Shown here piece by piece: positions 1 to 59,191 of a stretch of DNA of 64,000 bases. The stretch's first letter is position 1; each line of letters starts with the position of its first letter. Position numbers and translations under genes: made by a program. Source of the DNA: Sipunculus nudus (Eukaryota > Annelida > Sipuncula > Golfingiida > Sipunculidae); assembly GCA_026874595.1 (NCBI GenBank), contig CM049309.1, positions 67,252,926-67,316,925 of the forward strand, read 5' to 3'. The notes under the pieces are model-generated. The model saw nothing but the letters and a program-made list of their open reading frames with translations. It was not told where the DNA came from and ran no database searches.

Positions 1-639
1 CAGTGTTTGGGCTCTCCTGCAGATTGAGTAAAACAAGACAGATTCAGTTTAAAATCACCAAAATGACTGAAAGATCTGTCCAGATGTGATATAAATGTTA
101 TTATTAAGCTAAAACATGCTATACTGCCAGTCCTTGAGATAAAGCTTATAATCAGCCGAGCTAACTAAATGAATAGCCCTAACACCATAAGATGCAAGCT
201 TATTTCCTTTAGTGAATCAATCACCTGAGACTGGTCAGCAACTAATTCATCTAAAGCATACAAGGGGGCAAAGTAACTAACTGACTACTTACTCTAGGCC
301 AACTGGTGGTCCTTATACTGTGGTTGCCTTTTTTTTTTTCGCGAGGGTTTTGATTAAATAAGTTACCACTGCTGGAGGTAAGTATAGCAGAAAAAGTTAT
401 CATTTGTTGATCTCTACAGCAGCCTATTGTGTGATTGGGGGAGGGGGGAAGAGAGGCAGTGGGATGGTCTACTATTGTGAGAGAGGGCTGGCTGGGTGTC
501 TTACATGATAATGTTGTAAAAGTTACATTGTTAATAGAGATGTGGCTGGCTGTGTTATATGATAACTTAGTTAAAGTTGGTGTTATTAGAGATCAGTCAT
601 TGGTTTTTAGCTCAGCTGACTTATTAAGTTATCTGAGCT
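1..639. other. non-coding, nothing recognised
   Basis: AT-rich DNA with a poly-T and a poly-G/A patch near 330-450. No gene or element ends seen. Confidence 0.5.
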
Positions 640-3562: not shown

Positions 3563-5583
3563 TTGGATTCGCCAAGTTTTGTGGATACTATGTTTTCAGT
3601 CGAACGCCGCTGCCGCCGCGACCACCACTGCCGCATAGGTTTCCCGAGAACTCCTCCGTAACCATTGGGAAGAATTTTTTTAAATTCGGAATTATGATCG
3701 GGTCACATGTGAACTGCTGCGCCCTCGTTTTTGGTTGACCTCTGACCTTTCCTCTCTGCCCAGCATTCATTTGTGCATCTGTTTCCAAACATAAACCCAC
3801 ATATCTCGGGAACCGTTTGACCGATCAGGCTAAAAATTTTGTACAAATGTACCCCTTGGATAGCTTTGTAACATACACTAAAAATGGTGGCGCCACCTGC
3901 AACCATTTTGGCCCAGCGTCCATCTGTTCATCTGCCTTGGGATAAAATCACTCATATCTCTGCATTGATTGGACTTATCAACCTGAAATTTTGCATGTGT
4001 ATACATCCTGGACAGCTTTCTTGATTTTATGACAGGTGGCGCCTCCTACATTCACGTTTAAGCTGCAGACATCCAAGCTCATATCTCGGGAACCATTTGA
4101 CTGATTGAGCAAAAATTTTGCTTGTTTATAGATCTCACATAGCTTTTCATCATACGCAAAACTGGTGGTGCCACCTGCAACCATTTTTGCACAGTGTCCG
4201 TCTGTTTGTTTGCCGTGGGATAAAACCACATATCTTGGCAGTGGTTTGACATATCTGCCTAAAATTTTGCAGGTTTATACATCTTGGACAGCTTCCTGGA
4301 TTTTGTGGCAGGTGGCGCCACCTACATTAATGTATATGCTGCAGACATTCAGGCTTATATCTCAGGATTGGTTTAACATATCCCCCTGAAATTTTGCATG
4401 TGTATAGATCTCACATAGCATTTCATTATACGCAAAACTGGTGGCGCCACCTCCAACCATTTTTACACAGCGTTCATTTGTTCATCTGCCTTGAGATAAA
4501 ATTACTCATGTCTTGGCAGTGGTTTGACTTATCCACCTGAAATTTTGCAGGTTTTATACATCCTTGACAGCTTTCTTTATTTTATGACAGGTGGCGCCAC
4601 CTACATTCACATTTACGCTGCAGACATCCAAGCTCATATCTCGGGAACCCTTTGACCGTTTGGGCTAAAATTTTGCATGTTTATAGATCTCACATAGCCC
4701 TTTATCATACACAAACCTGGTAGCACCACCTTCAACCATTTTTGCACTGCATCCATTTGTTCATCTGCCTTGGGATAAAATTACTCATATCTCAGCAGTG
4801 GTTTGACTTACCCACCTGAAATTTTGCAGGTTTATACATCCTTGACAGCTTTCTTGATTTTATGACAGGTGGTGCCACCTATATTCACATTTATGCTGCA
4901 GACATCCAAGCTCATATCTCAGGAACCATTTGACCGATTGGGCAAAAATTTTGCATATTTATAGATCTCGCATAGCTCTTTATCATTCCCAAAACTGGTG
5001 GCGCCACCTGCAATCAATTTTACACAGCATCCGTCTGTTTGTTTGCCATGGGGTAAAATCACTTATATCTCTGCAGTGGTTTGGCATATCTGCCTTTTTG
5101 CCAATTTTGCAGGTTTATACATCTTGGATAGCTTTCTGGATTTTGTTCCAGGTGACGCCACCTACATTTATGTATACGCCGCAGACATTCAGGCTTATAT
5201 CTCAGGACTGGTTTGACATATCCCCCTGAAATTTTGCATGTGTATAGATCTCACATTGCTCTTAATAATACACAAAATTTGTGGCGCCACCTGCCACCAT
5301 TATAGCACAGCGTTCTTCTGTTTGTATGCTGTGGGATTAAATCACTCATATACAAGTAGTGGGTTGAATTATCTGCTTAAAATTTTGCATATGTATACAA
5401 CATGGACAGCTTTCTGGATTTTGTGGTATGTGGCGCAACCTACATACACATTTCAGCTGCAGACATCCAGGCTATTATGAAACACACCTCACTCTATTTC
5501 CCCTTGCCACTCAATCCATGCCTCACTTCATCCGTCCCACTCTGATTTTGGCGTAGTCGCTTGATGACTAATCATATTCTAGT
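3563..5583 (+). mobile_element. HINE/pearl-like element, family 1, older copy
   Basis: This copy shows a decayed 5' hairpin (GTGGATACTATG at its end) and the same GC-rich leader near 3600. The core holds repeated GGTGGCGCCACC half-units from about 3885 to 5440. Its end reads GTAGTCGCTTGATGACTA...ATTCTAGT, where the subterminal inverted repeat is partly deleted. The core has more units than the copy at 15 kb and the units are more diverged, so it is older or has been expanded. There is no coding capacity; short open frames inside it are repeat read-through. Confidence 0.75.
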
Positions 5584-7905: not shown

Positions 7906-9200
7906 CCTCATTTTGGTTGACCTCTGACCTTTCTTCTCTGCCCAGCGTTCATTTATGCGTCTGTTTCCATGCATAAACCCACATATCTAGGAAACCGTTT
8001 GACCAATAAGGCTAAAGAAATGTAGCCCTTGGAAAGCTTTATAACATTCACAAAAAATGGTGGCGCCACCTGCAACCATGTTTGCGCAGCGTCCATCTGT
8101 TCATCTGCCTTGGGATAAAAAAACTCATATCTCTGCATTGGTTGGAATAATCCACCTGAAATCTTGAATGTGTATACATCCTGGACAACTTTCTTGATTT
8201 TATGACAGGTGGCGCCACCTACATTCACGTTTAAGCTGCAGACATCCAAGCTCATATCTCAGGAACCATTTGAGCAGTTGGGCCAAAATTTTGCATGTTC
8301 ATAGATCTCCCATAGCTCTTTATCATACGCAAAACTGGTGGCGCCACCTGCAACCACTTATGCACAGTGTCCATCTGTTCATCTGCCTTTGGATAAAATC
8401 ACTCATATCACAGAAGAGGTTTGACTTATCCACCTGAAATTCTAGTTTTAAAAAGTCCTAGTCTGAAACTTGCAGGTCTGAAACGTCCCTTTTGCTGAAA
8501 TCATAATGACTAAGGTAGATATGCAGGACTTAAGAGGATCAATATTAAATTTTAAAAATAAACCTCCATTCATACTCCCAAAGTTTGTACAGGTTCGCAT
8601 TAGGCCTGTAGGCCTTGTATAATTTCAAGGCAGGTGGTGCCACTTACATTCCATTCAGGATGCAGACATTGAGGCTTATATCTCAGGACTGGTTTGACAT
8701 ATCCTCCTGAAACTTTGCATGTGTATAGATCTCACATAGCTCTTTTATCATAGGCAAAACTGGTGGCGCCACTTGCAACCATTTTTGCACAGCATCCATC
8801 TGTTTGTCTGCCGTGGGATAAAATCACTCATATCTTGGCAGTAGTGTGACTCATCTGCCTAAATTTTGCATATATATACATCTTGGATAGAATTCTGGAT
8901 TTGTGGCAGGTGGCGCCATCCACATTTATGTTTAAGCTGCAGACATCCATGCTAATATCTCAAGACTGGTTTGACGTATCCCCCTGAAATTTTGTATGTG
9001 TATAGATCTCACATAGTTCTTTATCATTCACAAAATTGGTGGCGCCACCTGCAACCATTTTTGCTCAGCATCCTTCTGTTTGTCTGCTGTGGGATAAAAT
9101 CACTCATATACAAGAAGTGGTTTGACTTATCTGCCTACAATTTTGCATATGTATACAACTTGGATAGCTTTCTGGATTTTGTGGCATGTATGTGGTCTCT
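7900..9200 (+). mobile_element. HINE/pearl-like element, family 1, truncated copy
   Basis: This copy begins inside the leader (GGTTGACCTCTGACC, about 7914), so the 5' hairpin is missing, and it ends without the 3' hairpin. The core half-units with GGTGGCGCCACC are clear at 8060, 8210, 8338, 8910 and 9040. About 190 bp of unrelated sequence interrupts the core near 8440-8635. It is the right part of a duplication whose left part matches the flank of the 3.5 kb copy. Confidence 0.7.
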
Positions 9201-15132: not shown

Positions 15133-16832
15133 TTGTATCCGCCAAAACAGAGTTTTGCGGATACTATGTTTTCAGCTGCACGCCCCCACCGCCGCCGCGG
15201 CGTAGGTGTCCGGAGAACTCCTCCGTAACCGCTGGGCGGAATTTTCCGAAAACCCGGGATTATGTTCGGGTCACATGTGAACTGCTGCGCCCCGATTTTG
15301 TTTTGACCTCTGACCTTTCCTCTGCGCTCTGCGTCCGTTTGTGCGTCTGTTTCCACACATAAACCCACATATCTCGGGAACCGTTTGACCGATCAGGGAA
15401 ATTTTTTAGCACAAATGTAGCCCTCGGAGAGCTTTATAACATACACCAAAAATGGTGGCGCCACCTGCAACCATGTTTGCACAGTGTCCATCTGTTCGTC
15501 TGCCTTAGGTTAAAATCACTCATATCTCTGCAGTGGCTTGACTAATTCACCTGAAATTTGGCATGCGCAAACATCCTGGATAGCTTTTCTGATTTTATGA
15601 CAGGTGGCGCCACCTACATTCACGTTTACACTGCAGACATCCAAGCTCATATCTCGGGAACCGTTTGACCGATCAGGAAAATTCTTTTGCACAAATGTAG
15701 CCCTTGGAGAGCTTTATAACATACACAAAAAATGGTGGCGCCACCTGCAACCATGTTTGCACAGTGTCCATCTGTTCGTCTGCCTTGGGTTAAAATCACT
15801 CATATCTCTGCAGTGACTTGACTAATTCACCTGAAATTTGGCATGCGTATACATCCTGGATAGCTTTTCTGATTTTATGACAGGTGGCGCCAATTACATT
15901 CACGTTTACGCTGCAGACATCCAAGCTCATATCTCAGGAACCGTTTGACCAATCAGGAAAATTTTTTTCACAAATGTAGCCCTTGGAGAGCTTTATAACA
16001 TACACAAAATGGTAGCGCCACCTGCAACCATGTTTGCACAGTGTCCAGCTGTTCGTCTGCCTTTGGTTAAAATCACTCATATCTCTGCAGTGGTTTGACT
16101 TATTCACCTGAAATTCGGCATGCTTATACATCCTGGATAGCTTTTCTGATTTTATGACAGGTGGCGCCACCTACAATCAAGTTTACGCTGCAGACATCCA
16201 AGCTCATATCTAGGGAACCTTTTGACCAATTGGGCAAAAATTTTGCATGTGTAAAAATCTTATATAGCTCTTTATCATACGCAAAACTGGTGGCGCCACC
16301 TGCAGCCATGTTTGCACAGCTCCCGTCTGTTTGTCTGCCATGGGATAAAATCACTCATATCTCGGCAGTGGTATCTGCCTAAAATTTTGCAAGTTTATAC
16401 ATCCCCGACAGCTCTCTTGATTTTATGACAGGTGGCGCCACCTGCATTATAGTTTATGCAGCAGATATCCAAGCTCATATCTTGGGAACCGTTTGACCGA
16501 TTGGGCCAAAGTTTTGCATGTGTATAGTTCTCACAAAGCTCTTTATCATACACTAAACTGGTGGCGCCACCTGCAACCCTTTTCTGCACAGCGTCCATCT
16601 GTTTGTCTGCCAAGGGCAAAAATCACTCATATACAATATAGTGGTTTGACTTATCTGCCTTAAATTTTGCATATGTATACAACTTGGACGGCTTTCTGGA
16701 TTTTTTGGTAGGTAGCGCAACCTACATACACAATTTGGCTGCAGACATCCATGCTAATATGCAACACTTCACCCGTTCCACTCTGATTTAGGCGGATACA
16801 AGTAGTCGCTTGTCGACTACCCATATTCTAGT
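15133..16832 (+). mobile_element. HINE/pearl-like element, family 1, near-complete copy
   Basis: The 5' end begins TTGTATCCGCC and folds into a 13-bp hairpin with one bulged C (15135-15163). Near the 3' end, GGCGGATACAA (16791-16801) is a perfect 11-bp inverted copy of the 5' tip. It is followed by a 7-bp hairpin GTAGTCG-loop-CGACTAC (16802-16820) and the terminus ...ATTCTAGT. Between them lies a tandem core of about 282-bp units. Each unit is made of two diverged half-units of about 150 and 132 bp that carry the palindrome GGTGGCGCCACC. No transposase frame is present, so it is non-autonomous. The layout (asymmetric terminal repeats, 3' hairpin, CTAG end, tandem core) fits helentron-associated elements (HINEs), such as bivalve pearl elements. 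Class assignment is inference from architecture. Confidence 0.8.
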
Positions 16833-17550: not shown

Positions 17551-18838
17551 ATGCCCCCGCCACATAGTGGCGGGGGCATTTAGTTTTACCCATGTCCGTC
17601 ATTCCAAAATAAAACAGTTGTATGGACTTTTTTTTGCAATGCCTGCAGATATTGGCCTGATTTTTGGTGTGTGGGCAGATATTGACCAGTTACAGATCGA
17701 GTTCGTGTTTCGTCCCAGTTGACCTACTTTTGACCGTTTTACGGCTCCTGAACATAGAAAATTTCATGCAAAATATAAATTTTCATGACAAATACACATG
17801 TACTGACTTTTTTTTTGCAATACCTGCAGATATTGACCTGATTTTTGGTGTGTGGGCAGATAATGACCAGTTACAGATCGAGTTCATGTTTTGTTCCAGT
17901 TGACCTACTTTTGACCGTTTGACGGTGCTCTAACATAGAAAATTTAATAAAAAAGTGCACATGTATGGACTTTTTTTCCTCAATGCCTGCAGATACCACC
18001 CTGATTTTTTATGTGTGGGCAGATAATGACAGTTACAGATCGAGTTCGCGTTTCATCCGGGTTGACCTACTTTTGATTGTTTTACGGCTCCTAAACATAG
18101 AAAATTTCATGAAAGACAGAAATTTTTATGGAAAATACACATGTATGGACTTTTTTTCACAGTGCCTGCAGATACTGGCCTGATTTTTGGTGTGTGGGCA
18201 GATAATAACCAGTTACAGATCGAGTTCGCGTTTCGTCCCAGTTGACCTACTTTTGACCATTTTACGGCTCCTTAACTTAGAAAATTTCATGAAAAATATA
18301 AATTTTCATGACAAATACACATGTACGGACTTTTTTCGCAATGCCTGCAGATATTGGCTTGATTTTTGGTGTGTGGGCAGATATTGACCAGTTACAGATT
18401 GAGTTCATGTTTCGTCCCAGTTGACCTATTTTTGACCGTTTTACAGCTCCTGAACATAGAAAATTTCATGAAAAATATAAATTTTCATGACAAATACACA
18501 TGTACTGACTTTTTTTTGCAATACCTGCAGATATTGACCTGATTTTTGGTGTGTGGGCAGATAATGACCAGTTACAGTTCGAGTTCATGTTTTGTTCCAG
18601 TTGACCTACTTTTGAAAATGCACATGTATGGACTTTTTTTCACAGTGCCTGCAGATACTGGCCTGATTTTTGGTGTGTTGCTTGATAATGACCCGTAACA
18701 GGTCCAGTTTGCATTTTGCCCTTGTTGACCTACTTTTGACCATATGACACCTCCTGAACTAAAAAATAATTTCAAAATTTAATAAATGTTTCTAATTTGC
18801 CCCAGGCTGGGGCATTCGTGTTGTTCCGACACATCCAG
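17551..18838 (+). mobile_element. HINE-like element, family 2
   Basis: It begins with a perfect 13-bp hairpin (ATGCCCCCGCCAC, loop ATA, GTGGCGGGGGCAT; 17551-17579). It then has about 6.5 tandem units of roughly 170-180 bp, each with GCCTGCAGATA and GTTGACCTACTTTTGA. At the 3' end, GGCTGGGGCAT (18805-18815) is an inverted copy of the 5' tip with one mismatch, followed by a hairpin GTGTTG/CGACAC and ...ATCCAGT. The order of parts is the same as in family 1, but the sequence is unrelated. There is no transposase frame. Confidence 0.78.
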
Positions 18839-22484: not shown

Positions 22485-23221
22485 TCATAACACTGTTACT
22501 TGATCCATAAACGGTTCACTCTCATCACCCAAGTGTTGCTGTTCATCAGGTGATCCAGTCTGGAGACTCTGGGTAGGAGAGAGGTTTGTCACATTAGTCT
22601 CATTTATCAGACTCGAGGCCACACTGTTTCTGCGTTCCCGCTCCATGTTTTTCATAGACTCGAGATTATTATTGTTATACTTATCACTCAGTAGAGTCTT
22701 GAGCTTGTGTCCGACCATCCAAAGCAGGAACGGAATCGGAGTGAGTAACATAATGTACAGCGGCACAACTGCCGTTAAATCTGCGTCCAAACGGGGAAGA
22801 GTAAACTGGATCATCCCTAGCAGTAGCAGCCCGTTAAAAGTTGAAACTTCACATGAGATAGCACTCCGGCGTTTCCTGTCCTGTTGTACAATATGAGCGG
22901 CGATTTGAGTTAACAGGAACGCAGCACACGGCATGAGTGAGAGTCCAATGATAGAGTGAACTTCCATCAGAGAAAATGCATAGGAATTGATGTACATGCC
23001 TATAGTGATGTACACTAATGTGAACAGTAGTAACGATGGCTTAATTAACCACTCCAGCAAGTAATTAGTGGCATGTTTTAAACTGTTTCTCAGCACCACT
23101 CCCAGCAAGTAAGCTCCCGTTGTAGCCCCCAACCAGATCACAAACCATTCCATTGCAGGCACCAGTTTTTCCTGAGACTCCACTGCTAATCCAAGCAAGT
23201 ACATCCATAACATGAATGAAC
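22485..23221 (-). CDS. SLC10A3-like: SLC10-family (P3/SLC10A3-like) membrane protein, coding exon 3 of 3 with stop
   Basis: The terminal 737-nt exon starts after TTTCAG and completes Gly286, then encodes residues 287-530. Five to six hydrophobic segments are visible (about residues 289-298, 308-329, 345-363, 374-397, 410-427, 433-455), which complete the ten-helix symporter domain. The helix that normally reads E-x-G-x-Q-N reads E410-V-S-T-F414-N415 here, so the glutamate and asparagine are kept but the glutamine, a sodium-site ligand in bacterial and ileal members, is a phenylalanine. Sodium coupling may therefore be altered; that is inference. The tail (about 456-530) is polar, Asn/Ser/Glu-rich and cytosolic by prediction, and it ends in T-V-L, which fits a class I PDZ ligand. 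The length exceeds the human P3 proteins mainly through the tail and ectodomain. Confidence 0.9.
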
Positions 23222-24536
23222 CTGAAACAAAGAAAAAGGAAAATTATGTGGTGCGTGACAGATTTTATTTCCGTTTAAAGGGACTGGTTGGTTGAATTGT
23301 TTATCTGTTACATCCACATACTACCATTAAAGTTAGTGACATGACCATGTATTCACAGACCTTAGTAATGTAGTTCTTTCAAGTACGTTAGATAAGAATG
23401 ATTCTAGCAAAGTACATAGACATGGGTGTTTTTTGTGGTGAGGACTTCATGGAATAAGTAATATATTGTATGCATACACATGTGAAATGTAAACAAATGG
23501 TGTTTCCTTGAAATGTAACAAATTTTTATTTTAAAGTTTGACTGTTGAGACAAGTAGCCAGGCTGTCCCACACTGCCCAACAAGAATACATTTTGTTTTG
23601 AGTAGAAACGACTGTTGGCAGAAGGGTGCATAGAACAGAACATTATGCAGATGTACTCTAAAGAATGAACAACATGTGTGCAGTACATAAAACAATCTGG
23701 TAAACACCACAGCAGAGGCACAGCACCTAGTGACCTTCAGCTCTGGCTGGTGCCACTGGTCTACACCTTACCTCTTAATTGGCATGGACACTGTCAACCA
23801 GCAGGTGATAAGTACACCTGTACCAGCACGGCCTGCACCAGCCCAGCCAGTCTCTTAATTACCTGGAGCTGATCTTTTAGGGTAGTCACACCTCAAAATG
23901 CTCCTGGGAAATAAGCTCAAATGATTTGCTTTTTAGCACATATCCCGACTGGCAGTTTTCTCAGTGTTACAGTTCAGCAATGTTGTAATGAAGCATCAAC
24001 CAGACATGATAAGTTGTCATTTGTGATGCAAATGGTTATTTTCACCTGTTTCGTTGTGACCAAAATGTGTGCTTTTTCTGTCTTTCATACCTTAAAATAA
24101 CCTACCAGGGTATGCTAACTCAAGTAACACCGAGTGCAATACTGCAGTTCTTTTCACAGTTAACTGGTGGAAGCCTCTTGCTAGCATGAACACAATAAAG
24201 TCCATACTCCATAGGCCTTTGGTTAGCTCAAACCCAGTATGTATTGGAGTATATTTCTGCATAACTTAATATTTAGGGGTGTAAAAATGCATCAACAATT
24301 GGTGCATTGAATTGCAACCCTTTAAAAAATTATTATTGCTTTTTAACCTCCCAATAAATTTTGTTTTGATTATTTGTTTTTTGCATATACCACCAAGAAG
24401 GTCTCATACCCAGAGTATGCCACATTGTCAAGGCTATTCTGTATTCATTATGAACATGTGCCCTAGATATAGTTTTAGTACTTACATTTAAACTGTTCCA
24501 GTTGCATAGAAAAACAGATGAACTGAGGGAGAACTA

Positions 24537-31634: not shown

Positions 31635-31805
31635 AAGCAAGAGAATAATTCAAAACCAACTGGGAATCAGTCAGTTGAAGCATATAATCCTTTGGACAAT
31701 TGAGAGAATAATTCAAAGCTAACAGAATATAATCCCATACAACATTGTGAGAATTAAAAACTAACAGAATATAATCAATTACAAGATTGAGAGAACACTT
31801 CAAAA
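31635..31805 (-). repeat. three-copy tandem repeat near the exon 1 donor
   Basis: Three units of about 55-65 bp share GAGAGAATAATTCAAAAC and AACAGAATATAATC. It ends about 45 bp from the donor of SLC10 coding exon 1. Confidence 0.65.
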
Positions 31806-31849
31806 CTAACATTTATATATTTATAATTCAGTATATGGAATATACTTAC

Positions 31850-32533
31850 AGGGGGAAGAACAAGGATTTTAATAATCATAGCAATGATTGTCCCGACTGG
31901 TTCTTTTAGCTGACCGTAAAGATTTTTCCGATCAGTCAGGCAGCCCACGGTGAAACTTGTAAGAACTCCTGTCACTGCCACGGCCCATTTAAATGCGGTA
32001 TCCACAAGACGATACTTCCTTATAACACTAACATCATAATCAACATGAGTAAAATTTTCCAGTTGTGTAACAGATGCGTTGATTGATATATTATGCATTT
32101 GCTTCCTGGTAAGGACCAGATGGATTGTAGCACGTCCGAGTCCTACTCCCTTGACTCTGAAGTGTTGTGTGCATCGCATGTCCAAGGGTAGCATAATCCA
32201 ATTATTGGAGTTCCCTCTGGTGGTGTCATTCAAGCCAGGCACTGGTACCGCAACTGATGGAGCATCAGAAAATATACTTGCAAAATACCTCCAGTTGTTA
32301 TGATTGGCAAACAATACCAGGGGGATGGAGCAGTTAAAAAACACTGTTTGCTCTGCAGTAGCTGATAAATTGACTAATCTTTTGGGACTAAATGACACCA
32401 CTGGTGATAGAGTCACACTAGAGATTTCAGCCCCCTGTCCAGGTGACTCGTTGACTGCAGCTAATAGAAGGATAACAGAGAGACATCGATGAAGTGAGAG
32501 CTTCCGCATCCACACCCAAGCTGTACCTGTCAT
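31850..32533 (-). CDS. SLC10A3-like: SLC10-family (P3/SLC10A3-like) membrane protein, coding exon 1 of 3
   Basis: First coding exon (684 nt, codons 1-228) of a 530-residue protein; the full CDS is 32533-31850, 30263-30092 and 23221-22485 and stays in frame across both introns. An in-frame TAG lies 12 nt before the ATG, so translation starts at Met1 or Met9. Residues 10-33 are a hydrophobic signal peptide. Residues 34 to about 175 form an ectodomain with six N-glycosylation sequons (N55, N67, N102, N148, N152, N160) and cysteines C68 and C121. The first membrane segments follow from about residue 177. The exon ends after a proline codon (phase 0) at donor CCT|GTAAGT. A long glycosylated N-terminus before a symporter fold is typical of the orphan P3 branch (SLC10A3/A5) rather than the short bile-acid carriers. 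Substrate unknown. The gene is sure; the exact paralogue is not. Confidence 0.9.
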
Positions 32534-35489
32534 CTTCTCGGGCTATCAGTGCAAACGATGGTCAGAAACATGCAGGAATCGGGGTATAGAAGCACCTGAG
32601 TGGAACATGAGCAGATGAAATTGATTCAGGGGGCTCCCCTGCCAGCTAGCCCAATGAGCAGTATTGCGATAGACTCATCAAACCCAGGCAGTCGGTCTTG
32701 CTCAGTTTTTGGAACTCCCATTTCATGCGAGCGTGTGCCCACCCCCCTACTAGCTGATTGCGTATATCATAAACCTCAGGTATTGACCAGTCAGCCAGTG
32801 TTGGGTATGTACCCTGTGCCTGGTCACCCCTGAGTGAGACGTTTTTCATAACAATCAGACCATGACTCCAGTGTGTGCTGCAGCTGGTACATTTGAATCA
32901 GTACATCGGCAGTCCATTGTATGTTGCACCTTTCACAGTTAAAAACATAAAAAAAAATTTTCAATCATACCTCCCTACTTTCATAAAACATTGTTTTGGG
33001 TTCAGTTATCATTAATGTCTTTAATTCTTGTACACCAAATAATTATATAACATATTATATATAAACATAATATGCAAGTCATGTATGAAGTGTATCAGTG
33101 TTTCTGAGCATTTGCATGGAGACTTGTATGAATGTAAAATTGGCAACTGCATGGAGGTTATCAAACTTCCACACCAGCAATCATTGCATTTTAAGAATTA
33201 AACACTGCTAGCTATAGGTAACATAAAATTTCCTCTAGTCATCTAGTTTCAGCTCTAGTGATGCTGTTCCTATTTAAAGTCACATAAGAAGTCCACCTTC
33301 CAGGTGGTGTTATTTTTAAAATTCTACAGGTATAACAGCTCCTTGATGTTTACTGTACGTTTGATGTGTTTTACTTTTTATCTTCTGCAGTCTTATTTTT
33401 AGCTTATCTCCCAATGCGTGTAATCCTAGTACTCCCAACCTTGTGCATATGATCCTATATTTCAAGAAGATTTACAATTTAATTAATAACAAGTTGAACC
33501 AAGTAATGATGTTGATTTCATTTCCATTAAGCAGCCACTGCTGAATTATAGGGACTAAATCCTGGTTTCTCATGAACATGTGATCTTCAATATTGTGATC
33601 CTCATTTAATAGACAATATGCCAAATTTAGACACTCCTAAATTTGTAATAACATGTATATCCATTGCTTTGTGGTAATCCATATTTTACAGACAATTATA
33701 AAAATAGACAGTGTCCCTAATTAATCATCAGTTAAGTAATATCTGGTCCTCACTCAAGACCTTGGCTGTGTTTAGCATTAAATATATCTGTAGATGTTAA
33801 AAAAATCATTGGCAATCAATATGTAACTTTTACAAGTCTTTTACAATATACTGAACAGTACTGAACAGTATTTCAGAGTGTCTTCTGTTTTTATGAGCCT
33901 GCTTTATTTATGCTAAAGGCAACAGAATATAAGCATATCTATATCATTACATAGCAGCAGGCACAGGGATCTATCGACTAGATTGTAGTTCATACATATG
34001 ACAGCAGGGTCACTATGTTCTGACACCTTTAATTATCCCCTTCTCTCTCATCATTGGAAACATCCAGGTATATACTACAGTAACATGCTAACCAGGTGCA
34101 GATAGATCAATATTTCCAGGTGTATGTTGGCTTTTTTATCTTGTTACCTGGTTAGCTATCTCACTTAAAACATTGTACAAGTTTATATGTTCTGTCAGTT
34201 AACATACTGCGACTCACTAATATTTTCTCATTTTTGCTTTTGTACATGTTTATACTCTATGATATATATCATACCTTAGTTATAACTAATAATTACTGTA
34301 TTGTTATATTGTAACTACTAAATACAACTTGGGTTAGGTTTTGGCTTAATATTCTGTATCATTCTTAAATTGTGCTATATCATTACACATAATTTCTGTC
34401 TGAGTCCTTTGGACAAATTTAACATTGTCATGCTCTAATGAATAAGAATTCTCACGGTTGGTTTGCTGTAACTTTAATGGTCTAATTTGGCCATCTCAAA
34501 TCAACAGTGTATTCAAATGGTTATGTATATTGGGCCAATTACTGCCTGAAGTTATCATGCTGTGGGTCTCCACCTTTTACATGTTTTGATTTATATATTG
34601 GTGCACTCAAGTTTGCAAGAGTTTCAAACTTAAGATATTTTCCTTGTTGTCAAAATATTCTCAAATTTGCAAAAAAAAACAAAACATAATACATTTTTAT
34701 TCCTAATTTAGGTTTTAATGAGACTGCACCATATGATAGTTAACCATATTGATTAAAATATGCAATGGATGACAGCTTCCTCTGACATATAAACCATTAC
34801 TGGTAGTTTATTTGGGTAACCTGTATATTATTCCAGACTAAATGAACACCAGATGAGATAATTTAATAGTGAAGCTATGTATATTTATTTCTATGGCTTT
34901 CAGGTTGTCTACATTTGCAAACTCACTGAATTAAAATAATGCAGTTGATTATTCTTATAACAGACTATATACCTGAAGTATTCATGAATAATAGTTTGAC
35001 AAGTACACCTCCAATACTCTTAAATTAGCAAATAATTAATAATGAGATGCATTATTGGAGGAGTTACAAGACTCACAGTCCTATGTTGTAATCTGTTGGC
35101 GTCCTTCTGAGTTTGGTGGTCAGCCTTGGTGGTTTGATTGTTACTCAGTCACTGGTTTTAACAGTGGTAAGATTCCTGTATTGATTTGAAACAAAATACT
35201 ATTACAAATTACTGAGAAAATACAACTGACTAGGTTTTTCTATGCCTTGCTATAATGATTTTGCTGTGTCTGTGCTGATGTTTCCTCAAGTACAAAAGCC
35301 TGCACCCTTTAACATCATTTATTCTTTTTTTTCAGCAAATGTTATATATTTCTTTTTTTCCAAGAGCTGTTTATTTCACTGATTGTCTCCCCTCATTGTA
35401 TTGATGACTTATTTCATTACATAAGACTTTATTTTTGTTGCCAAGTGCTGTATTTAACTTTCACTGCTTATTCACATTAATTCTTTATC
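32534..35489. other. upstream region of the SLC10-like gene
   Basis: This holds the 5' UTR and promoter of the minus-strand gene, but no TATA box or upstream exon can be assigned with confidence. The first 300 bp are less AT-rich than the rest. Beyond that the DNA is AT-rich and non-coding. Confidence 0.4.
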
Positions 35490-45953: not shown

Positions 45954-45968
45954 ATATATATATATATA

Positions 45969-46122
45969 TATAACTCTGAAGAAAAACAACACTGTAAATT
46001 CACTACAGTCTGTTTCACGGGATGCGACCCGATCATTCTACCAACATTCACCTGATGATCGGCTCGCGTCCCGTGAAACAGACTGTAGTGAATTTACAGT
46101 GTTGTTTTTCTTCAGAGTTATA
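45969..46122. repeat. 68-bp inverted repeat flanked by (TA)n
   Basis: Arms 45969-46036 and 46055-46122 are inverted copies with two mismatches and an 18-nt spacer. The right arm plus spacer carries the hammerhead motif. The left arm, read on the minus strand, lacks the CTGATGA box and stem I. (TA)n tracts flank it at 45954-45972 and 46187-46264. Near-identical arms imply a recent origin; a head-to-head pair of Penelope-like element ends is one explanation. Confidence 0.7.
46043..46098 (+). ncRNA. type I hammerhead ribozyme motif
   Basis: The conserved core is present in order: stem I strand ATTCAC (46046-46051), CTGATGA (46052-46058), a short stem II CGG/CCG (46060-46062 with 46071-46073), and GAAA (46075-46078). 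A two-base-pair stem III, AC/GT, follows with a 5-nt loop, then the cleavage triplet GTA ending at 46087, then GTGAAT (46088-46093) pairing perfectly with the first strand. Very short stem III is typical of ribozymes carried by Penelope-like elements, which act as dimers. Positions flanking stem II (T46059 and T46074) are unpaired, so activity may be weak. Confidence 0.6.
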
Positions 46123-46180
46123 CTGCTCTGGCCTAGTCTGTTGGCCATAGAGCACTTTACATCGGAGGGTAACTCTACCT

Positions 46181-46186
<6 letters not shown>

Positions 46187-46264
<78 letters not shown>
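46187..46264. repeat. (TA)39 microsatellite
   Basis: Uninterrupted TA dinucleotide run, 70 bp downstream of the hammerhead-bearing inverted repeat. Confidence 0.97.
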
Positions 46265-48030: not shown

Positions 48031-48938
48031 CTAGAATACGGGTAGTCGACAAGCAACTACGTGTATCCGCCTAAATCAGAGTGGAACGGGTGAAGTGAGG
48101 CATGGATTGAGTGGCAAGGGAAATAGAGTGAAGTGTTGCATATTAGCATGGATGTCTGCAGCCAAATTGTGCATGTAGGTTGCGCCACCTACCACAAAAT
48201 CCAGAAAGCCGTCCAAGTTGTATACATATGCAAAATTTAAGGCAGTTAAGTCAAACCACTTCATGTATATGAGTGATTTTTGCCCTTGGCAGACAAACAG
48301 ATGGACACTGTGCAAAAATGGTCGCAGGTGGCGCCACCAGTTTTGCGTATGATAAAGAGCTATGTGAGAACTATACACATGCAAAATTTTGGCCCAATCA
48401 GTCAAACGGTTCCCGAGATATGAGCTTGGATGTCTGCAGCGTAAACATGAATGTAGGTGGCGCCACCTGTCATAAAATCAGAAAAGCTATCCAGGATGTA
48501 TACGCATGCCGAATTTCAGGTGAATCAGTCAATCCACTGCAGAGATGTGAGTGATTTTAACCCAAGGCAGACAAACAGATGGACACTGTGCAAACATGGT
48601 TGCAGGTGGCGCCACCATTTTTTGTGTATGTTATAAAGCTCTCCAAGGGCTACATTTGTGCAAAAAAATTTTCCTGATTGGTCAAAAGGTTCCCGAGATA
48701 TGTGGGTTTATGTGTGGAAACAGACGCACAAACGGACACAGAGCGCAGAGGAAAGGTCAGAGGTCAAAACAAAATCGGGGCGAGCAGTTCACATGTGACC
48801 CGAACATAATCCCGGGTTTCGTAAAATTCCGCCCAGCGGTTACGGAAGAGTTCACCGGACACCTACGCGGCGGCGGCGGTGGGCTGAAACATAGTAATAA
48901 GTAATAGTATCTGCAAAACTCTGTTTTGGCGGATACAA
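48031..48938 (-). mobile_element. HINE/pearl-like element, family 1, short complete copy on the minus strand
   Basis: Read on the minus strand it starts TTGTATCCGCC at 48938 with the 5' hairpin and continues through the GC-rich leader and the tandem core. It then reaches GGCGGATAC, the 3' hairpin (decayed to GTAGTTGCTTGTCGACTAC) and the end CTAG at 48034-48031. At 908 bp it has only about three to four half-units, against more than ten in the copy at 3.5 kb. Family length is therefore set by core copy number. Confidence 0.8.
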
Positions 48939-50394
48939 TTAACAAAAAAATTGTTTACAGGGATTCAAAGTATGGCTATACTGTTGTTGGCTGTTGGACA
49001 TTATTTCCTGCTAGCATCCACTTGGCCAACCATATGACCATGCCATATACCCCAGATTTCATGTACATTTATATTAATTTAGTATTAATATTAGGCCTTG
49101 GAATTGTGAGGGGCTTTTGAATCAATTCAGTAGGTTGATTCTTATCCTTTGATTTGATTCTCGATTCAGTTTTTACCAGAAAATTTCAGACTTGCTTTTA
49201 AGTAGAAATAAATAATTTACCACAACTGATATTGTTAATTTTAGCAAATAAAGTAAAAATATAGCTTGCCCTCTGTTTATCACTGCCATTTTTGTTTCTA
49301 GATTAGTGGAATGCTTTACTGGCGAGTGTTTAAACTATATCTTGAGCACATAGGCAATTAATAGCCGAAAGAATCAACATTGCTGTGTGCCCCATCAAAG
49401 TTGACAGCTCAATCACAGAGGGTTTTGGGGTTGTGCATGGATAAATTATAGTTTAAATGAGTTCAGAGGTTATGAATCAATAAAAATTTAATTGAGGGGT
49501 TGCAATTCATTAAATCAATGCATTGTTATACTAATAAATATGGATCATAAATAATAACATTAGGGGATACAACTAGTTTTGCAGTGATAAAAATGTCCAT
49601 CAATATCATCATTTTCCCAATTTCATTCATCACAACATGTTTTAAGAAAAAACTTCTAAATAGGCTTTGAGTAATTTGTTAAAAGAAGTAATACAACCAG
49701 TGAAATAAACACAGAAAAAAAACATCTTGTTTAGAGTAAACCGCTGCCAAAGTAAAACAGAACAACTAGATTCATCAGGATCTACAGCAAAACTCAATGT
49801 AGTCTTTCCTGGCCCAGGGAATGACAAAATGATACAAACAAAAATGCCACAAACAAAATGCAACTGACTAAAATGGCACAGATGAAAATGGCAGACACTG
49901 ATTGAAACATATTCCTCCTTAGTAACATTCGGTAATGATTACTGTAGGAGTGTTACCATAATTTGGTTAAATGCTGTCAGACTCTGTGTACAGCCAATAC
50001 AACTGGGATGATCAGATGAGGAAATGATGCTGAAGTCCTTGCTGAGCCTTTCCTGTATATCGAGTCCCTAAGTAACCCGGCCAATCAGTGTCACTGCAGT
50101 GCTTAATATGACAAGAAACCACAGAGACAGTAAAAGCAGCCTGGGGAACTATTGATCACCAGGGTCTGGCTTGCCTCACTAAACTTCATAGAAAAGGAGC
50201 TGATGTGATTGGCATTGAAGTCACTATAAAAGAAAGGTACTTCACCACTCCTGGGTAAATTCTGTCTGTTAATCAGTTTGGTTTTAGTTTGTGAACATAA
50301 TCACTCCTATTTGCAAAACTGTAAATATGTTACTATTGGCATTTACCAAGCCCAGAGATTATTGCGTTTTATGGCAAACCCAGAAAGACCATGC
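48939..50394. other. non-coding with weak repeat traces
   Basis: Around 49095-49530 phrases such as GGAATTGTGAGGGGCTTTTG and AATTGAGGGGTTGCAATTC appear inverted. Similar words occur near 17450-17530 and 24270-24325, which suggests an old dispersed element. No gene seen. Confidence 0.35.
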
Positions 50395-57042: not shown

Positions 57043-59191
57043 ATGCCCCCACCACAAAGTGGCCGGGGCATATAGTTTTACCCATGTCCGTCATTCCGTC
57101 CTTCCGTCCTTCCGAAATCAAACAGTTGTACGGACTTTTTTACGCAATGCCTGCAGATATTGGCCTGATTTTTGGTGTGTGGGCAGATATAGACCAGTTA
57201 CAGATGGAGTTCGCGTTTCGTCCCGGTTGACCTACTTTTGACCGTTTTACGGCTCCTAAACTTAGAAAATTTCATGAAAAATAGAAATATTCATGACAGA
57301 TACACATGTACGGACTTTTTTTCGCAGTGCCTGCAGATATTGGCCTGATTTTTAGTGTGTGAGCAGATATGGACCAGTTACAGATCGAGTTCGTGTTTCG
57401 TCCTGGTTGACCTACTTTTGACCGTTTTACGTCTCCTGAACATAGAAAATTTCATGAAAAATATGAAATTTCATGACAAATACACATGTACTGACTTTTT
57501 TTCGCAGTGCCTGCAGATATTGACCTGATTTTTGGTGTGTGGACAGATATAGACCAGTTACAGATCGAGTTCGCGTTTCGTCCCGGTTGACCTACTTTTG
57601 ACCGTTTTACGGCTCCTAAACTTAGAAAATTTCATGAAAAATAGAAATATTCATGACAGATACACATGTACGGACTTTTTTTTGCAATGCCTGCAGATAT
57701 TGGCCTGATTTTTGGTGTGTGAGCAGATATAGACCAGTTACAGATCAAGTTTGTGATTCATCCTGGTTGACCTACTTTTGACCGTTTTACGGCTCCTGAA
57801 CATAGAAAATTTCATGAAAAATATGAAATTTCATGACAAATACACATGTACAGATTTTTTTTCACAGTGCCTGCAGATATTGGCCTGATTTTTGGTGTGT
57901 GGACAGATATAGACCAGTTACAGATCGAGTTCGCATTTCGTCCCGGTTGACCTAATTTTGACCGTTTTACAGCTCCTAAACTTGGAAATTTTCATGAAAA
58001 ATAGAAATATTCATGACAGATACACATGTACGGACTTTTTTTCGCAATGCCTGCAGATATTGGCCTGATTTTTGGGGTGTTGGCAGATATAGACCAGTTT
58101 TTAGATTGAGTTCACGTTTCGTCCCGTTTGACCTATTTTTGACCGTTTTACGGCTCCTAAACTTAGAAAATTTCATGAAAAATAGAAATATTCATGACAG
58201 ATACACATGTACAGACTTTTTTTCGCAATGCCTGCAGATATTGGCCTATTTTTTGGTGTGTGGGCAGATATAGACCAGTTACAGATGGAGTTCGCGTTTC
58301 GTCCCGGTTGACCTACTTTTGACCGTTTTACGGCTACTGAACATAGAAAATTTCATGTAAAATATATATTTTCATGACAAATACACTTGTACAGACTTTT
58401 CTTCACAATACCTTTTCTTCACAATATTTTTAGAAATATTCATGACAGATACACATGTACAGACTTTTTTTCGCAATGCCTGCAGATATTGGCCTGATTT
58501 TTGGTGTGTGGGCAGATATAGACCAGTTACAGATCAAGTTCACGTTTTGTCCCAGTTGACTTATTTTTGACCGTTTGACGGTGCTCTAACATAGAAAATT
58601 TCATAAAAAGGTGCACATGTATTGACTTTTTTTCGCAGTGCCTGCAGATACGGGCCTGATTTTTGGTGTGTAGGCAGATAATGACCAGTTACAGATCGAG
58701 TTCTTGTTTTGTCCCAGTTGACCTACTTTTGACCATTTGACTGCTCCTGAACATAGAAAGTTTCATGAAAAATATAAATTTTCATAACAAATGCATATGT
58801 ACTGACTTTTTTTCCTCAATGCCTGCAGATACCACCCTGATTTTTTTGTGTGGGCAGATAATGACAGTTACAGATCGAGTTTGGGTTTCATCCCGGTTGA
58901 CCTACTTTTGATTGTTTTACGGCTCCTAAACATAGAAAATTTCATGAAAGACAGAACTTTTTATGGAAAATGCACATGTATGGACTTTTTTTTCACAATG
59001 CCTGCATATACTGGCATGATTTTTGGTGTGTTGCTTGATAATGACCCGTTACAGATCGAGTTTGCATTTTGCCCTTGTTGACCTACTTTTAACCATACAA
59101 CACCTCCTGAACTTAAAAAATTTTCCAAATTTTACAAATGTTTCTAATTTGCCCTAGGCGGGCGCATTCGTGTCGTTCCGACACATCTAGT
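57043..59191 (+). mobile_element. HINE-like element, family 2, in a TRAPPC13 intron
   Basis: The 5' end ATGCCCCC...GGGGCAT is a slightly decayed hairpin. About 11 tandem units follow with a regular spacing close to 180 bp (for example ACATGTAC at about 57306, 57485, 57665, 57845, 58025). The 3' end has GGCGGGCGCAT (one mismatch to the inverted 5' tip), the perfect hairpin GTGTCG-TTC-CGACAC (59170-59184) and ATCTAGT. One interior unit is damaged by a short local duplication near 58400. It lies wholly inside the 6.8 kb intron in the sense orientation of the gene. Confidence 0.82.

What the first reader, a model, noticed from the sequence alone, without database searches (positions are those of the whole stretch)
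45969..46264. Hammerhead ribozyme core inside a 68-bp inverted repeat next to (TA)n
Seen: all core boxes of a type I hammerhead (CTGATGA, GAAA, GTA cleavage triplet) with a perfect 6-bp stem I, a short stem II and a 2-bp stem III. They sit in a near-perfect inverted repeat (2 mismatches in 68) between TA microsatellites. Known: Penelope-like elements and retrozymes carry such minimal hammerheads, and Penelope-like terminal repeats can be inverted. Inference: a truncated head-to-head pair of element ends that may still self-cleave as a dimer.
Basis: partly seen in the sequence, partly recalled or inferred. Interest (0 to 1): 0.8.

Follow-up and report, generated by a model that had tools for sequence, protein, structure and literature searches.

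The report
Head-to-head Penelope element insertion
The hairpin is a tiny inserted copy of an abundant Penelope-type jumping gene with a hammerhead-ribozyme-like end, and comparison with its sister copies suggests that both ends of the cut DNA prime copying of one RNA, each from its own fixed start site.

Summary
In detail: a 68-nt inverted repeat (97% complementary, 18-nt loop) whose right arm carries a hammerhead-like core, between (TA)n runs. The arm is the 5' region of a Penelope-like element (PLE) found thousands of times in this genome, including tandem arrays of about 2,925-bp units with a 713-codon frame. The hammerhead lies just upstream of two positions, about 62 nt apart, at which insertions end. 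They resemble the two internal reverse-transcription start sites and the "tail" of an anole PLE.

Sampled pairs: 67 of 68. Genome-wide exact patterns: 79 mixed, 0 site1-site1, 0 site2-site2. Arms of a copy mostly share subfamily bases, while junctions vary. Best reading: twin priming, both DNA ends priming cDNA on one RNA, each from its own site; this argues against self-priming. The window copy is such a product. Its own ribozyme is probably dead or masked: damaged stem II, U·U mismatch, a 68-bp hairpin, no Rfam hammerhead match. Evidence of cleavage in the family is weak.

The parts
45954..45971 (.). left (TA)n run, presumed target site
   Evidence: read; sister copies are commonly flanked by (TA)n
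45971..46036 (-). left arm: inverted element end, coordinates about -65 to 0, ending at site 1 without tail
   Evidence: matches reference unit L037 at 95.6% as 2..-65
46035..46120 (+). right arm: element coordinates -85 (A of an Inr-like TCATTC in L037) to 0 (site 1)
   Evidence: window 46033-46183 matches the reference unit -87..63 at 92%; coordinates
46046..46093 (+). hammerhead-like core: stem I ATTCAC/GTGAAT, CTGATGA, reduced stem II, GAAA, stem III CA/TG; predicted cut after 46087
   Evidence: read; descriptor hit at 46052; no Rfam hammerhead match
46121..46183 (+). tail, between site 1 and site 2, with two predicted stem-loops in the array unit; present beside the right arm only
   Evidence: fold
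46187..46264 (.). right (TA)39 run, presumed target site

Best explanation
Positions 45971-46183 are a short insertion of a hammerhead-bearing Penelope-like retrotransposon. The element's enzyme cut a (TA)n target and both 3' DNA ends primed reverse transcription on one element RNA: one end started at site 1 (after ..CAGAGTTA), the other about 62 nt downstream at site 2 (after the tail). Both cDNAs ran towards the RNA 5' end (here to about -65 and -85) and were joined there, giving a head-to-head inverted pair with exactly one tail. Shown from sequence: the family, two discrete end sites, the one-tail rule, matching template bases within a copy, copy-specific junctions. Inferred: that the two cDNAs share one RNA molecule, that -85 is the transcription start, and that the cut target is the primer. 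The inverted repeat and the masking of the hammerhead are then by-products of the event, not a selected structure.
For: Family and sites. One-tail rule: 67 of 68 sampled pairs, and 20 of 21 in the two sets chosen blind to the tail; genome-wide exact patterns 0 / 79 / 0 for site1-site1 / mixed / site2-site2. Unpaired ends in the same blind sets are 60 site 1 and 23 site 2, so independent choice would give many pure pairs. Same template: of 36 pairs with long arms, at -33 the arms are TT 27, AA 7, A/T mixed 0, other 2; at -25 AA 20, TT 13, mixed 2, gapped 1; at -8 TT 24, CC 11, mixed 1; within-copy difference 3.3% against 6.3% between copies, 0 of 2,000 permutations as low. New junctions: 56 distinct of 67. 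The arms' 5' extents differ: site-1 arm longer by over 8 nt in 25, shorter in 13, about equal in 29 of 67. Site-2 ends pile up at -19..0, i.e. where the site-1 cDNA begins: 21 of 163 ends in L079-L214. An anole PLE protein cuts and extends both strands in vitro from two adjacent internal RNA sites (PMC11167929).
Against: One genome only. No RNA, protein or target-duplication data; duplications cannot be read inside (TA)n. Matching arms could come from gene conversion between arms, and two RNAs from one source bound by an asymmetric dimer would also fit. One pair of 68 has two tails (L066, very short arms). Three copies, the window's among them, share one junction (-65/-87), so some pairs may be copies of each other; L182 and L183 may be one event. 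The patterns ask for unmutated ends, one gap range and only the C variant of the tail start. Site-1 ends short of about -20 could hardly be sampled, so the pile-up of site-2 ends near 0 has no site-1 counterpart to compare with. Profile libraries do not confirm the RT and endonuclease domains.
Confidence: 0.75

Rival explanations
1. Self-priming: one cDNA (or an antisense RNA) folds back at its end and copies itself, making the inverted pair.
For: Proposed for inverted-repeat Penelope copies of a rotifer, on an antisense template (PMC3846280, Discussion read); it would explain matching arms.
Against: Folding back copies the tail into both arms or neither, but pairs carry exactly one. A copy started on the tail-bearing strand and stopping at site 1 would leave the tailed arm the longer, yet the untailed arm is longer by over 8 nt in 25 of 67 pairs. 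Untailed single copies also exist (60 unpaired site-1 ends), so site 1 is an end in its own right.
Confidence: 0.1
2. The hairpin is a unit that moves or is copied as a whole (a MITE-like fold-back element), so arms match by descent.
For: Many copies of similar size; arms match; some copies share a junction (L001-L003).
Against: 56 distinct junctions in 67 pairs; the parent is a coding retroelement with the same ends; ends are unequal, one with tail.
Confidence: 0.07
3. The hammerhead-like core is a chance or dead relic with no role in the element.
For: No Rfam hammerhead match; U.U at 10.1/11.1 in both units of L037, where a G-C pair is usual (recalled); the -85..+66 RNA does not fold into it as predicted MFE, and the 48-nt piece prefers another fold (-11.3 against -6.9 kcal/mol); nearly all sampled pairs with long arms span the predicted cut uncut.
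Against: A descriptor met by the sister-copy arm gave 0 hits in 17 Mb simulated; the anole PLE has its hammerhead at the same kind of place, beside the RT start sites, and it cleaves only with protein (PMC11167929); 5' ends are enriched at the predicted cut, 9 of 37 between -69 and -20 against 2.96 expected, binomial tail 0.002. That count is weak: L136 and L148 share a junction form that recurs in six loci of the listing, and L175 gives two of the nine.
Confidence: 0.35
4. A microRNA-type or other selected RNA hairpin.
For: Sub-threshold Rfam microRNA matches (up to 50 bits, gathering 88-100).
Against: All lie below gathering, on both strands, as any long hairpin would give; the structure follows from the insertion mechanism.
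Confidence: 0.03

Closest known systems
Poseidon_Ac (PAc), Penelope-like element of Anolis carolinensis (PMC11167929; abstract, main text and start of Methods read)
   Same: Tandem copies, hammerhead beside the RT start region, two internal start sites that bound an optional tail, AT-rich targets; both target strands cut and extended in vitro
   Different: There the hammerhead cut lies 26 bp into the frame and RT starts 111-118 bp into it; here both sites and the hammerhead lie upstream of the first ATG. Tail about 62 nt here, 30-40 bp there. The text read gives no one-tail rule for inverted copies
Penelope families of the rotifer Adineta vaga (PMC3846280; abstract, Discussion and passages read)
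   Same: Inverted pseudo-LTRs, head to head, with a tail optionally at one of them
   Different: Low copy number there, thousands here; the authors favour self-priming on an antisense template, the counts here favour twin priming
LINE-1 twin priming (recalled; only a search listing seen)
   Same: Two target ends prime on one RNA and give a head-to-head product
   Different: Second site variable in LINE-1, here two fixed adjacent sites, so that the arms overlap and form an inverted repeat
Animal retrozymes (PMC7229834; passages read)
   Same: Short non-autonomous elements with type I hammerheads in invertebrate genomes
   Different: Retrozymes are direct repeats giving circular RNAs; these short copies are single or inverted and derive from a coding element

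Membership tests
Penelope-like element (PLE) | reverse transcriptase and C-terminal GIY-YIG endonuclease in one frame | tested here: inconclusive
   713-codon frame with LYRDDGLG and a C-terminal HYIG..R..H..E..N-like stretch read by eye (motif meaning recalled); Pfam, NCBIfam and PDB sequence searches gave no relevant match
Penelope-like element (PLE) | tandem or partial-tandem copies, giving pseudo-LTRs | tested here: met
   C17 array: 45 of the 135 listed matches, about 2,925 bp apart or multiples; two units read
Penelope-like element (PLE) | optional tail between two discrete end positions | tested here: met
   ends at about 0..+2 or +61..+66
Penelope-like element (PLE) | inverted pseudo-LTRs and AT-rich targets | tested here: met
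   68 head-to-head pairs; (TA)n flanks in most copies printed
Hammerhead ribozyme | CUGANGA, GAAA and NUH boxes joined by three helices | tested here: met
   sister-copy arm: stem I 6 bp, stem II 4 bp after a U.U, stem III 3 bp; window copy: stem II 3 bp
Hammerhead ribozyme | match to an Rfam hammerhead model | tested here: not met
Hammerhead ribozyme | Watson-Crick pair at 10.1/11.1 (recalled) | tested here: not met
   U.U in the window copy and in both units of L037
Hammerhead ribozyme | self-cleavage | not testable with these tools
   only an indirect and weak excess of 5' ends at the cut
Retrozyme | short direct repeats each with a hammerhead | tested here: not met
   sampled short copies are single or inverted; direct repeats seen are 2.9-kb coding units
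TIR / MITE DNA transposon | equal terminal inverted repeats with fixed ends | tested here: not met
   one arm has an extra tail; junctions and inner ends vary

The most novel reading that the evidence does not exclude
Penelope-like elements integrate by fixed-site twin priming: the two ends of a target break prime on one RNA, one at site 1 and one at site 2, so that every head-to-head insertion carries exactly one tail. This single rule would explain why PLEs of many animals have inverted pseudo-LTRs with a tail on one side only.
Probability: 0.5. Interest if true: 0.75.

Novelty: new member of a known kind. Interest (0 to 1): 0.6.

Why it matters
PLE integration is poorly understood, and their inverted ends have been put down to self-priming (PMC3846280). 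This genome holds a large set of small, readable products of the reaction. The counts (79 mixed pairs, none of either pure type, by exact patterns) turn the mechanism into a testable statement. Sampled insertions mostly copy RNA across the predicted cut site, so the hammerhead's cleavage is not needed for them.

Tried and rejected
MITE, microRNA hairpin, retrozyme and self-priming readings: see rivals and membership. The signal at the hammerhead cut was pursued and left as weak: 9 of 37 ends, after dropping four rows that were palindromic alignment artefacts (L131 both arms, L087 site-2 arm, L096 site-1 arm); two of the nine (L136, L148) share a junction form that recurs in six loci of the listing, and L175 gives two. 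Single copies joined to (TA)n show recurrent junctions; those listings show only the first 100 rows, many of them one locus counted at several TA offsets. L013, first taken for direct pseudo-LTRs, looks like a local duplication (both copies have the same right flank) and is not used. The hammerhead energy printed for the window copy (7.5) comes from a one-base misplacement of my structure and is not used. Protein profile searches gave nothing useful. RF00163 genome search: uninformative. Paper searches.

Full report
What is there. The window holds a 68-nt inverted repeat (arms 45969-46036 and 46055-46122, 97% complementary, 18 nt apart), followed by a (TA)39 run. The right arm has the boxes of a type I hammerhead. 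The motif is unlikely by chance: 12 hits in 1.4 Gb of simulated sequence for a descriptor loose enough to take this copy. A stricter one is met by the arm of sister copies but not by the window copy, and gave no hit in 17 Mb simulated. Both were written after seeing the motif. Rfam does not recognise it as a hammerhead.

Family. The window lies in a 1.43-Gb genome in 153 contigs. The 34-nt core has 3,388 matches with up to three mismatches, a 25-nt stretch at site 1 has 3,466 with up to two, and the start of the tail 1,611 with up to three; the reversed-pattern controls gave none. Some copies run into a retrotransposon. L012 has an inverted arm, frames with LYRDDGLG and a GIY-YIG-like end, and a second arm with a tail. 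On C17 a tandem array spans about 153 kb; 45 of the 135 matches listed fall in it. Two units read in L037 have cores 2,925 bp apart and a 713-codon frame. I call this a Penelope-like element on architecture and motifs; no profile library confirmed the domains. Elsewhere in the window nothing else matched the unit.

Anatomy. With 0 as the last A of TTCAGAGTTA (site 1), an array unit has an Inr-like TCATTC with its A at -85, the hammerhead from -74 to -27 with the predicted cut between -33 and -32, site 1 at 0, a tail with two predicted stem-loops, site 2 at about +63, and the first ATG of the frame near +147. Anchored insertion ends lie at 0 to +2 or at +61 to +66. The protein of an anole PLE starts reverse transcription in vitro at two adjacent internal sites that bound its tail, and cuts and extends both strands (PMC11167929). 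Its hammerhead cleaves only with protein present, and hammerhead mutants still insert.

Head-to-head pairs. I examined five sets: the 10 best matches, 56 C1 loci with an unmutated core (from the listing), 52 C1 loci from the site-1 pattern (from the listing; loci already held and most array members left out), and 18 and 66 loci chosen by the tail (from the listings). They hold 68 adjacent head-to-head pairs in which both arms end at a site; 67 have one of each kind and one has two tails (L066). In the two sets chosen blind to the tail it is 20 of 21 (12 of 13 and 8 of 8), while unpaired ends there are 60 site 1 and 23 site 2. Genome-wide exact patterns with a 123-153-nt gap gave 0 for site1-site1, 79 for site1-site2 and 0 for site2-site2 (only the C variant of the tail start was asked for). 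Adjacent inverted segments of which one does not end at a site were left out of the count; one search lists them.

Same template, new junction. For 36 pairs with both arms reaching -66, the two arms of a copy mostly agree at polymorphic sites (at -25 two mixed pairs, at -8 one) and differ by 3.3% on average, against 6.3% between copies (0 of 2,000 permutations as low). L182 and L183 may be one event and were both kept. Junctions are mostly copy-specific: 56 distinct of 67; three copies, the window's among them, share -65/-87. The site-1 arm is the longer by more than 8 nt in 25 of 67 pairs, the shorter in 13. Of 163 5' ends in L079-L214 (four artefact rows and ends at locus edges dropped), 45 lie at -89..-82 and 21, all of site-2 arms, at -19..0. 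Site-1 arms that short could hardly have been sampled.

Mechanism. These facts fit twin priming on one RNA. The two ends of the cut target prime at the two sites; the cDNAs run to the RNA 5' end (putatively -85) or stop earlier, and are joined. The enzyme that starts at site 2 sometimes stops where the first cDNA begins. Self-priming, proposed for rotifer elements (PMC3846280), would give two tails or none. Gene conversion between arms, or an asymmetric dimer on two RNAs from one source, is not excluded.

Ribozyme. Most sampled pairs span the predicted cut, so uncut RNA was the template. A small excess of ends at -34..-31 (9 of 37 ends between -69 and -20, 2.96 expected, binomial tail 0.002) hints at some cut templates, and one listed copy joins site 1 directly to the base after the cut (C8:19179572-19179631). 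This is weak, for the reasons given under tried and rejected. The window copy has 3 bp in stem II and sits in a hairpin of predicted -115.9 kcal/mol; I expect no cleavage from it.

Novelty. The element is a new family of a known kind. In the parts of the two papers read, the tail is described as optional at one of the inverted repeats, but I saw no count, no one-tail rule and no twin-priming account. The searches were made, in an open-licence library only, so prior print elsewhere is possible.

Noticed in passing
G000 C17:42718675-42871596: Tandem array of the PLE: 45 listed matches over about 153 kb, spaced about 2,925 bp or multiples, many with a 713-codon open frame.
   Followed up: partly
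G000 C12:49443089-49514142 and C1:55954892-55966164: Arrays that switch from minus to plus strand, i.e. head-to-head at the scale of whole units.
   Followed up: no
G000 C1:68281320, C1:110652366, C2:59772320, C6:17043623, C8:12888385, C8:29488932: The same junction, (TA)n-TTATATGAATTAAC, in six loci of a truncated listing: recurrent microhomology or copies of one event.
   Followed up: no
window 3872-5473, 8661-9186, 15368-16760 and about 48140-48941 (minus): Tandem arrays of 277-280-bp units (first three) alike at about 74-88% across places up to 45 kb apart.
   Followed up: no
window 17619-18615, 57127-58413 and 58431-59123: Tandem arrays of about 180-bp units shared between places 40 kb apart.
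   Followed up: no
window 22485-23243 (-) and 31775-32542 (-): Long open stretches that look by eye like exons of a membrane protein gene.
   Followed up: no
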